Positions 42,322-46,500 of a stretch of DNA of 64,000 bases are shown here, piece by piece. The notes beneath the pieces are model-generated. The model saw only the letters and a list, made by a program, of their open reading frames with translations, ran no database searches and had not been told where the DNA came from. The DNA comes from Pseudomonas marginalis (GTDB taxonomy: Bacteria > Pseudomonadota > Gammaproteobacteria > Pseudomonadales > Pseudomonadaceae): NCBI RefSeq assembly GCF_008692035.1, contig NZ_VTFG01000003.1:1-64000 (forward strand), written 5' to 3'. The first letter of the stretch is position 1, and each line of letters starts with the position of its first letter. A program made the translations under genes and the position numbers.

Positions 42322-43821
42322 ATGACTACAACCATCGAGCACTACATCAACGACCAGCGCGTCAGCCGCGATGATCGCTATCAGGACGTCTACAACCCGG
42401 CCACCGGCGAAGTGACCGGCCGCGTTGCCCTGGCCAGCAGCCAGACCGTGTCAGAAGCCGTCGCCGCTGCCCAGGCCGCTTTTGCCGGTTGGGCCGACAC
42501 CCCGCCTATCCGTCGCGCCCGCGTGCTGTTCGAATACCTGCACCTGCTGCGTGAGCGCAAGGACGACCTGGCGCGCATCATCGTCGCCGAACACGGCAAG
42601 GTCTTCACCGATGCCCAGGGCGAAGTCGACCGTGGCATCGACATTCTCGAATTCGCCTGCGGCATCCCCAACCTGCTCAAGGGCGAGCATTCCGACCAGG
42701 TCTCCCGTGGCATGGACAACTGGACGATGCGCCAGCCGCTGGGTGTCGTGGCCGGCGTCACGCCGTTCAACTTCCCGGTGATGGTGCCGATGTGGATGTA
42801 CCCGATCGCCATTGCGGCGGGCAACACCTTCATCCTCAAGCCAAGCCCGACCGATCCAAGTGCTTCGCTGTTCATGGCTGAACTGCTGCGTGAAGCCGGC
42901 CTGCCCAAAGGCGTGTTCAACGTGGTGCAGGGCGACAAGGAATCGGTGGACGCGCTGATCGCGCACCCGGACGTCAAGGCTGTGAGCTTTGTCGGCTCCA
43001 CGCCGATTGCCCAGTACATCTACGAAACCGGTGCGCGCAACGGCAAGCGTGTGCAAGGCCTGGGCGGCGCGAAGAACCATATGGTGGTGATGCCGGACGC
43101 GGATATCGAAAAAACCGTCGACGCCTTGATGGGCGCCGCCTACGGCAGTGCCGGCGAACGCTGCATGGCCATCTCCGTCGCGGTACTGGTCGGCGATGTC
43201 GGTGACAAAGTCATCGCCGCCCTGACCGAACGCGCCAGGCACCTGCGCATCACCGACGGCCGCGACCTCAAGGCCGAGATGGGCCCGATTGTGTCCCGCG
43301 CCGCACTGGAGCGCATCAGCGGCTACATCGAACAAGGCGTGCAGGCCGGCGCGCAATTGCTGCTCGACGGGCGTGACTATGTACCCACCGAGGCTGGCCT
43401 GGAAAACGGTTTCTGGCTCGGCGCGACCCTGTTCGACCACGTGACCCAGGAGATGAGCATCTACCGCGAAGAAATTTTCGGCCCGGTACTGGCCTGCGTG
43501 CGCGTGAATGACTTCGCCGAGGCGGTGAAGCTGGTCAACGACCACGAATTCGGCAACGGCGTCAGCTGCTTTACCCGCGACGGCAACATTGCCCGCGAGT
43601 TTGCCCGGCGTATCGAAGTGGGCATGGTCGGCATCAACGTGCCGATCCCGGTGCCGATGGCCTGGCACGGGTTTGGTGGCTGGAAGAAGAGCCTGTTCGG
43701 CGACATGCATGCCTACGGCACTGAGGGTGTGCGCTTCTACACCAAGCAGAAATCGATCATGCAGCGCTGGTCGGAGAGCATCGAGCAGGGCGCGGAGTTT
43801 GCGATGCCGGTGTCCAAATAA
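42322..43821 (+). CDS. mmsA: CoA-acylating methylmalonate-semialdehyde dehydrogenase
   Basis: A 499-aa ALDH of the MMSDH class, converting methylmalonate or malonate semialdehyde to propionyl- or acetyl-CoA in valine, beta-alanine or inositol breakdown. The nucleophile is C281 ([11 protein letters not shown]), and the usual general-base Glu is replaced by Asn in GLGGAKNH, a hallmark of the CoA-dependent MMSDH group. ATG 42322 gives the family length. No mmsB or inositol genes adjoin it, so its pathway is not fixed by context. Confidence 0.9.
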
Positions 43822-43843
43822 CGCTTGGCACCGCAGGGCAAAG

Positions 43844-43874
43844 GTGGGAGGGGGCAGGCTCCCTCCCACTTTTG
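43844..43874 (+). terminator. REP-type terminator after mmsA
   Basis: GTGGGAGGG (43844-43852) pairs with CCCTCCCAC (43861-43869), followed by TTTT. Same palindrome family as at 20986 and 46537. Confidence 0.8.
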
Positions 43875-43893
43875 GTTGTTTTTCACTTGAGGG

Positions 43894-43934
43894 TTGACGG
43901 CCAGGCGAATGACGAATACTGTACATAAACACAG
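43894..43934 (+). promoter_or_regulatory. SOS promoter: sigma70 boxes with overlapping LexA site
   Basis: TTGACG (43894-43899) and TACTGT (43917-43922) are separated by 17 bp. CTGTACATAAACACAG (43919-43934) is a perfect CTGT-N8-ACAG LexA box overlapping the -10 element. Predicted transcription starts near 43929. The promoter reads toward the pectin lyase gene. Confidence 0.8.
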
Positions 43935-44040
43935 TGTTTAAGCGCTGATCAACCAGGATGGCAACATCAGCCACGCCAAACACTGTGTGCAAGTTAATGG
44001 ATTAACTTAATGCGCAGGCTCGTTATACCGAGCCGTTTTT
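43929..44040 (+). ncRNA. Structured leader (attenuator or small RNA) before pectin lyase
   Basis: From the predicted start, ACACAGTGTTT (43929-43939) pairs with AAACACTGTGT (43978-43988), enclosing GCTGAT (43944-43949) with ATCAGC (43966-43971). AAGTTAAT-GG-ATTAACTT (43991-44008) forms a second stem. The unit ends in an intrinsic terminator 20 bp before the pectin lyase ATG. It could be an attenuated leader needing antitermination, or an SOS-induced small RNA. Confidence 0.55.
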
Positions 44041-44042
44041 AT
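44017..44042 (+). terminator. Intrinsic terminator directly upstream of pectin lyase
   Basis: GGCTCG (44017-44022) pairs with CGAGCC (44029-44034), followed by GTTTTTAT. The mmsA gene already has its own terminator, so this one appears to act on the SOS promoter transcript. Confidence 0.85.
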
Positions 44043-44059
44043 TGATAGAGAGGGAACTC

Positions 44060-44998
44060 ATGTCCTATCCAGAAAGCAAACTCACCGGCTTAACCGGTTT
44101 CGCCCTCGCGGCAAAAGTCACCGGTGGCTGGTCCGGCCCTGTGGTCAGCATTACTACCCTGGATCAACTCAAGGCCAATATCGGCGACACCACGCCTCGG
44201 GTATTGGTGATCAACAGTAATATCTCGGCGTCGAGCCTGACCAAAGTCAACTTGGGCGCCAACAAGACCCTGATCGGTTCGTTCCAGAACCGCACGTTGG
44301 AGAATATTCACCTGCGTGCAACCGCGCAGTCGCAGAACATCATTCTGCAGAATATTATCTTCAAGCATTCGGCGAGCATTAAGGCCAATGACGATATTCA
44401 GGTCTACCTGAACTACGGCAGCAAGTACTGGATTGATCATTGCTCCTTTGTCGGTCACAGCTGGTCAACCACTGACGGCAGTGAAGATAAACTGCTGTAT
44501 ATCGGTGAAAAAGCCGATTATGCCACCATCAGCAACTGCTTCTTTGGCAGCCACAAGTACGGGCTGATCTTCGGTCACCCGGCGGATGATAATAAGGCAG
44601 AGTTCAACGGTTATCCGCGCCTGACGTTGTGTCATAACCGCTTCGACAATATGGAAGTGCGCGCACCCGGCTTGATGCGCTACGGTTACTTCCATGTGTA
44701 CAACAACTACATCAATAACTTCCACCTCGGTTTTACCCTGGCGCAGAACGCCAATATCCTGTCTGAAAGTAACTATTTTGGCGAAGGCAGCCAGAATAAA
44801 GGCATGTTGGATGACAAAGGCACCGGGACGTTCACTGATATAAACAGTGTGCCGCCGATCACCAACCAGAAGTCGCCCAAAGCACAATGGACGGCCAGTT
44901 CCAACTACGCCTATACCTTGAAGACCGCGACGCAAGCCAAGGACTTCACCCAGAAGAATGCCGGTGCCCAGGCTGCGGCGCTGGTATTCGGTAGTTGA
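44060..44998 (+). CDS. pnl: Pectin lyase (polysaccharide lyase family 1)
   Basis: A 311-aa pectin lyase. The sequence (SYPESKLTGLTGFALAAKV; YLNYGSKYWIDHCSFVGHSW; GLIFGHPADDN; MEVRAPGLMRYGYFHVYNNY) closely matches, as I remember it, the Pnl of P. marginalis and soft-rot Pectobacterium. These enzymes cleave methylated homogalacturonan by beta-elimination in plant cell walls. As in those enzymes, no signal peptide is visible, so release may be by another secretion route or lysis. ATG 44060 has GAGGGAA upstream. Base composition is lower in GC than neighbours, hinting at transfer. Control appears SOS-linked, consistent with mitomycin-inducible pectin lyases. Confidence 0.92.
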   Translation: MSYPESKLTGLTGFALAAKVTGGWSGPVVSITTLDQLKANIGDTTPRVLVINSNISASSLTKVNLGANKTLIGSFQNRTLENIHLRATAQSQNIILQNIIFKHSASIKANDDIQVYLNYGSKYWIDHCSFVGHSWSTTDGSEDKLLYIGEKADYATISNCFFGSHKYGLIFGHPADDNKAEFNGYPRLTLCHNRFDNMEVRAPGLMRYGYFHVYNNYINNFHLGFTLAQNANILSESNYFGEGSQNKGMLDDKGTGTFTDINSVPPITNQKSPKAQWTASSNYAYTLKTATQAKDFTQKNAGAQAAALVFGS

Positions 44999-45038
44999 GT
45001 AGCTAGCTTTCTATTGAGCTGTCATTTATTGCAAGTGC

Positions 45039-45071
45039 CACTGTATTTATATCAAGGATATAAATACAGTG
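45039..45071. repeat. 33-bp near-perfect palindrome between pnl and lsc
   Basis: CACTGTATTTATATC (45039-45053) and GATATAAATACAGTG (45057-45071) are exact 15-bp inverted arms around AAG. It begins 41 bases after the pnl stop and has no T-run. It may be a pnl 3' stem or an operator for levansucrase. Each arm contains CTGTATTTATAT, which resembles LexA half-sites, but the spacing is not canonical. Confidence 0.7.
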
Positions 45072-45111
45072 ATGGCCTTTGTAATCTAAATAATTCTTCA
45101 TGTTGCGATAA

Positions 45112-45146
45112 GCAAGTGCCCATGTTAAACCTTGGGGCGCACTTGC
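45112..45146 (+). other. Hairpin in the levansucrase upstream region
   Basis: GCAAGTGC (45112-45119) pairs with GCACTTGC (45139-45146). GCAAGTGCC also occurs as a direct repeat at 45031-45039. The region is AT-rich; no further gene is seen between pnl and lsc. Confidence 0.5.
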
Positions 45147-45249
45147 AGGGCCAACTATCTCTTGCTCTTTCAGTCAGTATTAAGTTGCTGGCTGCCAGGT
45201 GCTATTTAATCTTCGCTTGTCACTTAAGCGTCAGCAAAAGGACATCATC

Positions 45250-46500
45250 ATGAAACATGCGAATCACACACCCACTCGCTGGACACGGGCCGATGCGCTG
45301 AAAGTTAATGAAAATGACCCGACGACGACACAGCCGTTAGTGAGTCCTGACTTTCCTGTCATGAGTGACACGGTCTTTATCTGGGACACCATGCCCTTGC
45401 GTGAACTGGATGGCACGGTGGTATCGGTGGATGGCTGGTCGGTGATCTTCACCCTGACCGCCGATCGTCGCCCCCATGATCCACAATTCATCAATGCCGA
45501 TGGCCGCTACGACATCAAGCGCGATTGGGAAGACCGTCATGGTCATGCGCGGATCTGCTACTGGTATTCGCGCACCGGCAAGGACTGGATCTTCGGCGGC
45601 CGTGTCATGGCCGAAGGGGTTTCGCCGACCACCCGTGAATGGGCGGGCACGCCGATCCTGTTGAATAACAACGGTGACATCGACCTGTACTACACCTGCG
45701 TCACGCCGGGTGCCACGATTGCCAAAGTCCGAGGCCAGGTCATTACGTCGGACACCGGTGTCACCCTCCAGGGCTTTGATCAGGTCAAGTCGTTGTTCGA
45801 CGCCGACGGCACCTATTATCAAACCGAAGCCCAGAATGCGACCTGGAACTTTCGCGATCCCAGCCCCTTTATCGATCCCGTCGATGGCAAGTTGTACATG
45901 GTGTTCGAAGGCAATGTCGCCGGTGAGCGCGGCACTCACGAAGTGGGCCCGAACGAGCTGGGCCTGGTGCCGCCGGGGCACGAGGACGTGGGCGGTGCCC
46001 GCTACCAGGTGGGCTGCATCGGCATCGCCGTGGCCAAGGACCTCAACGGTGACGAGTGGGAAATCCTGCCGCCACTGGTCACGGCCGTCGGCGTGAACGA
46101 CCAGACCGAACGGCCGCACTATGTGTTCCAGGACAACAAGTACTACCTGTTCACCATCAGCCACAAGTTCACCTATGCCGATGGCGTGACGGGGCCGGAT
46201 GGCGTCTATGGGTTCGTCAGCGATCATCTGTTCGGGCCCTATACGCCGATGAACGCGTCCGGGCTGGTCCTCGGCAATCCGCCGTCGCAACCGTTCCAGA
46301 CGTATTCCCACTGCGTGATGCCCAACGGCCTGGTGACGTCGTTTATCGACAGCGTGCCCACCACCGGCGATGACTATCGCATCGGCGGCACCGAGGCGCC
46401 GACGGTCAGGATCGTGTTGAAGGGCGATCGTTCGTTTGTGCAGGAGGCTTATGACTATGGCTATATTCCGGCGATGCGGGATGTGGTGTTGAGCCAGTGA
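45250..46500 (+). CDS. lsc: Levansucrase (GH68)
   Basis: A 416-aa extracellular fructosyltransferase making levan from sucrose. The catalytic triad is visible: nucleophile D46 (VFIWDTMPL), transition-state stabiliser D202 (NFRDPSPF) and acid/base E286 ([12 protein letters not shown]). They sit at positions essentially identical to Erwinia amylovora levansucrase. There is no N-terminal signal peptide, as in Erwinia and Pseudomonas homologues. AGGA precedes ATG 45250. It lies 250 bp after pectin lyase behind a strongly palindromic region. Confidence 0.95.

What the first reader, a model, noticed from the sequence alone, without database searches (positions are those of the whole stretch)
43894..44060. 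SOS-controlled pectin lyase with a terminator-bearing structured leader
A TTGACG-N17-TACTGT promoter overlaps a perfect LexA box. The predicted RNA starts in a long composite stem (arms 43929-43939 and 43978-43988), has a second 8-bp stem, then an intrinsic terminator 20 bp before the lyase ATG. DNA-damage induction of pectin lyase is known in soft-rot bacteria through prophage-type regulators. Here the terminator implies either antitermination or a stand-alone SOS small RNA.
Basis: partly seen in the sequence, partly recalled or inferred. Interest (0 to 1): 0.75.

Follow-up and report, generated by a model that had tools for sequence, protein, structure and literature searches.

The report
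DNA-damage-switched pectin lyase with translation brake
In these plant-associated Pseudomonas bacteria a pectin-degrading enzyme appears to be switched on by the DNA-damage response and then held back at the messenger-RNA level by two conserved hairpins of the kind bound by the Rsm translation repressors, a two-step control known from bacterial toxins and apparently shared in part by the neighbouring sugar-polymer enzyme levansucrase.

Summary
The described features are real. The LexA site is the solid part: 30 of 30 distinct Pseudomonas orthologue upstreams keep TTGACG exactly 25 bp before CTGT-N8-ACAG, although flanks and spacer are about 28% identical between clades; 0 of 5 Erwinia upstreams have it. 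The leader needs another reading. The 'second stem' carries AUGGAU (ACGGAU in 16 of 23 main-clade leaders), the published high-affinity RsmE loop format; a second such loop (GAG-AGGGAA-CUC) covers the ribosome-binding site. Both occur in 30/30 orthologues, the upstream stem being rewritten between clades; of 89 testable ORFs only this one has the pair. The long 5' stem and the terminator's T-run are clade-limited, and the terminator arms have no alternative partner, so self-contained antitermination is unlikely. Best model: LexA repression plus Rsm translational braking, as in the colicin E2 lysis gene, with partial termination possible. Unexpectedly, the same leader lies directly before levansucrase in 5 genomes without the lyase, and a diverged levansucrase clade has its own CTG-N10-CAG site in 30/30. 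No expression or binding was measured.

The parts
43894..43899 (+). -35 element TTGACG
   Evidence: Sequence; exactly 25 bp before the LexA core in 30/30 distinct Pseudomonas orthologue upstreams
43917..43922 (+). -10-like TACTGT overlapping the LexA box (3 of 6 to TATAAT)
   Evidence: Sequence; below the scan threshold; supported only by the fixed spacing
43919..43934 (+). LexA box CTGTACATAAACACAG
   Evidence: half-sites kept in 30/30 Pseudomonas orthologue upstreams while spacer and flanks drift
43929..43988 (+). long composite 5' stem-loop (H1), from the predicted RNA start; arms 43929-43939 and 43978-43988
   Evidence: Fold; 97.2% of outer-stem cells paired in 23 main-clade leaders but no both-sided change there; not conserved in the diverged clade
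43991..44008 (+). Upstream Rsm-type hairpin (H2) AAGTTA-ATGGAT-TAACTT, ANGGAX hexaloop
   Evidence: the only A(N)GGAX loop on >=6 Watson-Crick pairs in the window, both strands; an A(N)GGAX loop upstream of the Shine-Dalgarno in 30/30 orthologue leaders, with unrelated stems in the two clades
44017..44034 (+). Terminator-like hairpin (H3) GGCTCG-TTATAC-CGAGCC followed by GTTTTTATTG
   Evidence: T-run of at least 5 in 8 in 23/23 main-clade leaders; in the diverged seven 5 (L054), 4 (L048), 3 (L046, L017, L018, L047) and no such hairpin in L049
44048..44059 (+). Shine-Dalgarno hairpin GAG-AGGGAA-CTC, second ANGGAX loop
   Evidence: 30/30 orthologue leaders; CTC (CTT in L048) kept where the spacing to the ATG changes
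44060..44998 (+). PL1-family pectin/pectate lyase gene (pnl), 312 aa, no strongly hydrophobic N-terminus
   Evidence: PF00544 E 4.8e-61
45039..45071 (+). 15-bp perfect inverted repeat with 3-base loop between pnl and levansucrase
   Evidence: Sequence; recognisable in 17 of the 18 loci aligned, with several changes in L129
45250..46500 (+). Levansucrase gene (GH68), 416 aa, no hydrophobic N-terminus; possibly read from the same SOS promoter
   Evidence: PF02435 E 1.8e-168; in 5 genomes without pnl the same LexA leader lies directly before it

Best explanation
This is a two-step control region of an exoenzyme gene. Step 1 (inferred from a strong phylogenetic footprint): LexA sits on CTGT-N8-ACAG over the -10 region and blocks the TTGACG promoter; DNA damage activates RecA, LexA cleaves itself, and transcription starts near 43929. 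Step 2 (inferred from motif, position and conservation): the leader RNA presents two A(N)GGAX loops, one on hairpin H2 and one on the Shine-Dalgarno hairpin, to RsmA/RsmE-type dimers, which block ribosome entry until GacA-driven Rsm RNAs, or enough leader RNA, titrate the protein away. The terminator-like hairpin between the two sites is a clade-specific addition that may cut the transcript short part of the time and may bring the two Rsm sites closer; it is not essential to the design, because relatives lack its T-run or the whole hairpin. Shown: the conserved sequences and predicted structures. Inferred: LexA binding, SOS induction, Rsm binding, partial termination.
For: LexA: 30/30 distinct Pseudomonas upstreams have TTGACG exactly 25 bp before CTGT-N8-ACAG, 0/5 Erwinia; main-versus-diverged identity 27% upstream, 28% in the spacer, 72% in the box. 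In this genome lexA, recN, yebG and topB have boxes within 3 mismatches of the consensus. Rsm: A(N)GGAX hairpins upstream and on the Shine-Dalgarno in 30/30; the upstream stem is AAGUUA/UAACUU in one clade and CAUGACC/GGUCAUG in the other, with an A-U to G-C change on both sides in L054. The loops match the RsmE rules in PMC4005645 (passages): an ANGGAX hexaloop directly on a stem is highest affinity, the hcnA ribosome-site loop is ACGGAU, and RsmZ SL3/SL4 have the 5-base form that the diverged clade has. Chance: 4 of 20,000 leader shuffles give one such loop on >=6 pairs, 0 give that plus a second; of 89 testable ORFs of at least 150 aa in the window and other stretches of this genome, 3 have a Shine-Dalgarno-near loop and 1, pnl, has both (the first count gave 1 of 91 with untestable and duplicate ORFs included). 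Trans factors: 4 CsrA-family genes and RsmZ at 122.5 bits.
Against: No expression or binding data were available. GGA is also a normal part of a Shine-Dalgarno, so conservation there is partly expected. The window's own H2 loop is AUGGAU (7 of 23 main-clade leaders), not ACGGAU (16 of 23). PMC4005645 says that omitting N, as in the diverged clade's 5-base loop, is one of the changes that lower affinity. In the window's fold to 44080 the Shine-Dalgarno region pairs with coding sequence instead; it forms the hairpin when the fold stops at the ATG. Leader folding is not exceptional in all relatives: of 8 folded, z is -4.05 (window), -3.26 (L054), -1.90 (L045), -1.74 (L018), -0.82 (L046), -0.66 (L048), -0.10 (L042), -0.02 (L049). 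Orthologues are related, so 30/30 is not 30 independent events. H1's outer stem shows no both-sided change; one of its pairs is broken in 4 of 23 leaders and three others in one each. L048's upstream loop sits on only 3 uninterrupted pairs.
Confidence: 0.72

Rival explanations
1. LexA control with an intrinsic-terminator attenuator: most SOS transcripts end at 44035-44045 and an unknown signal or protein lets polymerase read on into the lyase gene.
For: Terminator-like hairpin found; at least 5 T in 8 bases after the stem in 23/23 main-clade leaders; stem changes on both sides that keep pairing (within the main clade, between clades).
Against: No alternative partner for either arm in the minimum-energy fold of 23/23 leaders when the hairpin is forbidden, cost 7.4-13.3 kcal/mol (suboptimal folds and proteins not examined); of the 7 diverged leaders the T-run is 3 of 8 in L046, L017, L018, L047, 4 in L048 and 5 in L054, and L049 has no such hairpin; no conserved leader peptide: the 11-codon frame from ATG 44010 lacks its ATG in 4 of 23 leaders (read).
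Confidence: 0.3
2. The leader is itself a short SOS-induced small RNA, made by termination before the lyase gene, possibly a sponge for Rsm proteins.
For: Promoter, about 112 nt, terminator-like end; at least one high-affinity-type GGA loop on it.
Against: No separate copy found: 1 BLAST match in the genome and one model match a genome in 20 of 398 genomes, 15 at pnl and 5 at levansucrase (strict filters, 8 candidates scored a genome); in Rfam only two sub-threshold microRNA matches outside the leader at E up to 1; T-run not kept genus-wide.
Confidence: 0.12
3. SOS induction of the lyase runs through a prophage-type activator as in Pectobacterium (RecA-RdgA-RdgB), and the LexA-like site is incidental.
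For: That relay is the published one for Erwinia/Pectobacterium pectin lyase (titles seen in reference lists only); Erwinia orthologues here lack a LexA core; a PrtN-family gene exists in this genome.
Against: No Mor/RdgB-family match in the genome; LexA core and -35 spacing invariant in 30/30 Pseudomonas upstreams while flanking sequence is lost.
Confidence: 0.07
4. Ordinary SOS gene whose leader hairpins are only mRNA-stability elements; the GGA loops are Shine-Dalgarno sequence and chance.
For: No binding data; the Shine-Dalgarno must contain purines; H1 and H3 could serve stability.
Against: The upstream loop keeps A(N)GGAX in two clades with unrelated stems, and the five levansucrase versions of the leader have two such loops on other stems; base rate 1 of 89 ORFs.
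Confidence: 0.18

Closest known systems
Colicin E2 operon: LexA at the promoter, terminator T1 before cel, CsrA on the cel Shine-Dalgarno (PMC5157957, PMC5916893; passages)
   Same: SOS/LexA switch, a terminator upstream of the controlled reading frame, and a CsrA-type protein on the Shine-Dalgarno of that frame with GGA-loop hairpins
   Different: Here the product is a carbohydrate-active enzyme, not a lysis protein; both sites are in a 5' leader directly behind the promoter; on the genome's own contig rather than a colicin plasmid; not yet measured
hcnA leader of Pseudomonas fluorescens CHA0 and RsmZ stem-loops bound by RsmE (PMC4005645; passages)
   Same: ACGGAU hexaloop (16 of 23 main-clade leaders), AUGGAU here, or AGGAX pentaloop on a stem, one site covering the ribosome-binding site
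   Different: hcnA is not known to me as an SOS gene (recalled); here transcription is under a LexA box
Erwinia/Pectobacterium pectin lyase induced by DNA damage through RecA-RdgA-RdgB (titles only, in reference lists)
   Same: Pectin lyase under DNA-damage control
   Different: Direct LexA box instead of a relay; no Mor/RdgB family in this genome; no LexA core at 5/5 Erwinia orthologues
P. syringae levansucrase lscB/C with phage-associated promoter element PAPE (PMC3973379; passages)
   Same: Levansucrase gene with a transferable upstream expression element
   Different: No CTG-N10-CAG in the 547 bases before the matched start of the pDC3000A copy

Membership tests
LexA/SOS regulon | LexA box overlapping the promoter | tested here: met
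   43919-43934 over the -10 region
LexA/SOS regulon | Box conserved in orthologues beyond background | tested here: met
   30/30 distinct Pseudomonas upstreams, fixed 25-bp spacing; 0/5 Erwinia
LexA/SOS regulon | Cognate LexA with the same type of box at its own gene | tested here: met
   LexA equivalog (253.3 bits) starting 26 bp from the first base of CTGTATAAAAAGACAG
LexA/SOS regulon | Induced by DNA damage in a RecA-dependent way | not testable with these tools
   No expression data
Csr/Rsm target mRNA | A(N)GGAX loops on stems, one over the Shine-Dalgarno, another upstream | tested here: met
   30/30 orthologue leaders; 1 of 89 testable ORFs as base rate
Csr/Rsm target mRNA | Rsm proteins and titrating RNA in the same genome | tested here: met
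   4 CsrA-family genes; RsmZ 122.5 bits
Csr/Rsm target mRNA | Protein binds and changes translation | not testable with these tools
   Needs binding assay and reporters
Intrinsic terminator | G+C-rich stem followed at once by a T-run | tested here: met
   44017-44034 then GTTTTTATTG
Intrinsic terminator | Stem and T-run conserved in orthologues | tested here: inconclusive
   Met in 23/23 main-clade leaders; of 7 diverged leaders L054 has 5 T in 8, L048 4, four have 3, and L049 lacks the hairpin
Riboswitch or antiterminator-type attenuator | Alternative structure that takes up a terminator arm | tested here: not met
   No partner in minimum-energy folds of 23/23 leaders
Stand-alone SOS small RNA | Locus independent of the downstream gene | tested here: not met
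   (with strict filters)
RdgB-type pectin lyase regulation | Mor/RdgB-family activator in the genome | tested here: not met
   PF08765 none at E<=0.001
Pectin lyase (EC 4.2.2.10) | PL1 family | tested here: met
   PF00544; best solved relatives are pectate lyases, pectin lyases rank lower
Pectin lyase (EC 4.2.2.10) | Acts on methylated pectin without calcium | not testable with these tools
   Enzyme assay needed; the Serratia plasmid relatives at 80% identity are annotated 'pectate lyase'

The most novel reading that the evidence does not exclude
Pseudomonas carries a small SOS regulon of extracellular carbohydrate enzymes without signal peptides (pectin lyase and levansucrase). LexA switches them on in damaged cells, Rsm hairpins delay their translation, and SOS-triggered lysis (tailocin or prophage) releases them as public goods, a plant-polymer counterpart of colicin release. 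The LexA leader is kept at one chromosomal locus while the first gene behind it is either the lyase or levansucrase.
Probability: 0.3. Interest if true: 0.8.

Novelty: new variant of a known kind. Interest (0 to 1): 0.62.

Why it matters
It would join the DNA-damage response and the Gac/Rsm network on one messenger for a plant-cell-wall enzyme, explain how that enzyme can answer to DNA damage without a prophage relay, and extend the LexA-plus-CsrA logic of colicins to enzymes acting on plant and sugar polymers. The levansucrase result (CTG-N10-CAG in 30/30 of a diverged clade) suggests that SOS control of levan synthesis may be widespread in the genus, which a mitomycin experiment can test directly. 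Published P. chlororaphis data show lsc 3.9- and 12.0-fold up together with recN and lexA in phenazine-producing strains (PMC4727817, passages); that strain's lsc upstream was not examined here.

Tried and rejected
Self-contained antiterminator: arms of the terminator hairpin forbidden to pair with each other, no other partner in the minimum-energy fold of 23/23 leaders. Leader peptide: the 11-codon frame starting ATG at 44010 lacks its ATG in 4 of 23 leaders (read). Known RNA family: only two sub-threshold microRNA matches at 43837-43877, outside the leader. Second copy of the leader in the genome: none by BLAST. RdgB-type activator: none. Erwinia and Serratia orthologues as extra cases of the LexA box: none has it. 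GGA in the apex of H1 as a third Rsm site of pnl: CCAGGATGG in 6 of 23 main-clade leaders only. Covariation of H1 in the main clade: no both-sided change in the outer stem. NCBIfam named neither pnl nor levansucrase.

Rows dropped: of 48 pnl-type upstreams 35 are distinct; 5 Erwinia ones are counted apart, leaving 30 Pseudomonas. Homologues at about 45% identity (L022-L030, L058) were left out as a different gene; Pantoea plasmid relatives at 43% are annotated HopAK1. L057's lyase gene is split in tblastn but its upstream was kept. Of 75 levansucrase rows, 70 loci were examined; 5 partial or contig-edge ones (G056:C380, G380:C104, G326:C4, G169:C12, G326:C95) were not; L125 and L143 look like the same stretch on two contigs of one genome. 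Six of the diverged levansucrase upstreams (L158, L165, L166, L168, L174, L178) were placed by coordinates because the short overlap gave no tblastn hit.

Full report
The window lies in a Pseudomonas genome of the fluorescens/marginalis type (named relatives: P. grimontii, P. sivasensis, P. marginalis, P. extremorientalis and others). The gene behind the finding is a 312-residue PL1-family lyase at 44060-44998 (PF00544, E 4.8e-61). An aldehyde dehydrogenase gene precedes it and a levansucrase gene (PF02435, 45250-46500) follows it.

Observation. TTGACG 43894-43899, 17 bp, TACTGT 43917-43922 and CTGTACATAAACACAG 43919-43934 are as described. Taken alone the LexA core is weak: 0.65 matches are expected in 64 kb by chance, and the 16-mer has 3 mismatches to the palindromic consensus, a class with 17 sites in the genome against 2 in the control. 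The promoter scan found no site in 43000-46000, because TACTGT is a poor -10. The RNA from 43929 folds well (z -3.98) into the composite stem, a second stem and the terminator-like hairpin 44017-44034.

LexA site. Upstream regions of pnl orthologues were collected from unnamed genus genomes (33 of 398 genomes with a match at E<=0.001, 21 of them at 84-100% identity) and from named GTDB contigs (27 loci). The 48 upstreams taken reduce to 35 distinct ones. All 30 from Pseudomonas have TTGACG exactly 25 bp before a CTGT-N8-ACAG core; none of 5 from Erwinia has a CTG-N10-CAG in 400 bp. Between the main clade (23) and the diverged clade (7) the 50 bp upstream are 27% identical and the spacer 28%, about random, while the box is 72% identical with both half-sites kept. 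A Serratia plasmid orthologue (80% identity) also lacks the core in 500 bp. In this genome, boxes within 3 mismatches of the consensus start 26-75 bp before lexA, recN, yebG, a PA0069-type radical SAM gene and topB. Direct LexA control is therefore well supported by sequence. A Mor/RdgB-type relay as in Pectobacterium finds no candidate in this genome; a PrtN-type activator is present but was not connected to this promoter.

The leader is where the reading changes. The 'second stem' is AAGUUA-AUGGAU-UAACUU (43991-44008); the loop is ACGGAU in 16 and AUGGAU in 7 of 23 main-clade leaders. PMC4005645 (passages) describes the high-affinity RsmE site as an ANGGAX hexaloop directly on a stem, gives ACGGAU as the loop of the hcnA ribosome-site RNA, and describes 5-base loops without N in RsmZ SL3/SL4, a change it lists among those that lower affinity. 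The ribosome-binding site of pnl is itself GAG-AGGGAA-CUC, a second ANGGAX hexaloop. All 30 Pseudomonas leaders have both (stems of at least 3 pairs, G-U allowed). In six of the seven diverged leaders the upstream stem is unrelated in sequence (CAUGACC/GGUCAUG, with a both-sided A-U to G-C change in L054) and the loop is AGGAC; L048 has AGGAG on CCC/GGG. In the window this is the only A(N)GGAX loop on six or more Watson-Crick pairs on either strand; 4 of 20,000 dinucleotide shuffles of the leader give one, none gives it with a second. Of 89 testable ORFs of at least 150 aa, called mechanically in the window and other stretches of this genome, 3 have a loop near the Shine-Dalgarno and 1, pnl, has that plus an upstream loop. 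The genome has four CsrA-family genes and an RsmZ at 122.5 bits.

The other two structures are less universal. H1 keeps 97.2% of its outer cells paired in 23 main-clade leaders but shows no both-sided change there; one pair is broken in 4 leaders and three others in one each. It is not conserved in the diverged clade: L049 and L054 lack the stretch and the others fold differently. H3 is a real hairpin: two of its six pairs change on both sides across clades (GGCUCG/CGAGCC, GGCCCG/CGGGCC, GACUCG/CGAGUC, GACCCG/CGGGUC; read). Its T-run (at least 5 of 8) holds in 23/23 main-clade leaders; among the diverged seven it is 5 in L054, 4 in L048 and 3 in L046, L017, L018 and L047, and L049 (P. trivialis) has no such hairpin (where the script picked up H2 for L049). 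With the hairpin forbidden, neither arm finds another partner in the minimum-energy fold of any of 23 leaders. So partial termination in this clade is plausible, while a built-in antiterminator is not supported.

A covariance model of the leader was searched in 398 genus genomes (strict filters, 8 candidates scored a genome): 20 have one match each, 15 before pnl and 5 in genomes without a pnl match. In those 5 the LexA box and leader lie directly before levansucrase, and in 4 of the 5 (not L108) the aldehyde dehydrogenase of the window, 96-98% identical, ends just upstream, so this is the same chromosomal locus with and without pnl. All 5 have an AGGAA or AGGAU loop in the H1 apex and an AAGGAC hexaloop at the Shine-Dalgarno, on TTAA/TTAA- or TGAA/TTCA-type stems. 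Levansucrase matches at E<=1e-50 in 63 of 398 genomes. Of 70 loci examined, 14 follow pnl, 5 have the fused leader, 21 have no LexA core that I would call (two of these, L140 and L142, have CTGTTTCGATACGCAG at -384), and 30, a diverged clade from 30 genomes, have CTG-N10-CAG in 30/30 (24 of them CTGT-N8-ACAG; shuffles of the 30 give 0.6 on average), often nearly perfect palindromes such as CTGTATATATATACAG. The GGA loops in that diverged clade are weak (3-4 pairs in most, none in some) and I do not count them. The P. syringae PAPE copy examined has no such core.

Mechanism. LexA blocks the promoter until DNA damage; the leader RNA then exposes two Rsm sites that hold back translation until Rsm proteins are titrated; some transcripts may end at H3 in this clade. 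This matches the logic of colicin E2, where LexA controls transcription, a terminator precedes cel and CsrA covers the cel Shine-Dalgarno, delaying lysis-gene expression (PMC5157957 and PMC5916893, passages). Neither pnl nor levansucrase has a strongly hydrophobic N-terminus (best 12-residue Kyte-Doolittle mean in the first 41 residues 1.2 and 0.4; no signal-peptide program was run), so release by lysis of SOS-induced cells, as with colicins, is an attractive but untested extension.

Literature. Searches that could have shown this in print did not: pectin lyase with Pseudomonas and LexA, with mitomycin or P. marginalis, with RsmA/RsmE, with GacA, Pseudomonas SOS with RsmA, levansucrase with LexA. 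I judged these from the listings and opened only some of the papers; one Pectobacterium paper that holds both RsmA and pectin lyase (PMC5442451) was not opened. The library lacks most subscription papers. From memory only, mitomycin-C-inducible pectin lyase was reported for P. marginalis and P. fluorescens in the late 1980s; if so, DNA-damage induction of this enzyme is known, and the new parts are the direct LexA footprint across species, the Rsm hairpins and the link to levansucrase.

Noticed in passing
L153-L182 (levansucrase upstreams of unnamed Pseudomonas genomes): A diverged levansucrase clade has CTG-N10-CAG before the gene in 30 of 30, and TGCAYAAATGCA upstream of the -35 in 28 of 30.
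   Followed up: partly
L108-L112: The same LexA leader lies directly before levansucrase in five genomes without the lyase; the Shine-Dalgarno there forms its own A(N)GGAX hairpin.
   Followed up: yes
45039-45071: Perfect 15-bp inverted repeat with 3-base loop and LexA-like half-sites between pnl and levansucrase, without a T-run; recognisable in 17 of 18 loci aligned, including three without pnl.
   Followed up: no
G000 contig 1, e.g. 47089, 399264, 2288701, 2290156: A recurring CTGTCA-N4-TGACAG-like palindrome (CTGTCAGAATTCACAG, CTGTCAAACTTGACAG) turned up in the LexA-core search and looks like another regulator's operator.
   Followed up: no
L125-L127 upstream of levansucrase: The intergenic stretch retains bases like the end of pnl (TGGTAGTTGAGTAGCTAG) although no pnl is found in the 1500 bases upstream, suggesting loss of pnl at that locus.
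   Followed up: partly
L051:2943-2955 and L052:2942-2954: Erwinia persicina pnl leaders, without a LexA core, also have a CGAC-AGGAT-GTCG loop.
   Followed up: no
43839-43874: Strong 16-pair terminator-like hairpin with T-run just upstream of the promoter, probably ending the aldehyde dehydrogenase transcript.
   Followed up: no
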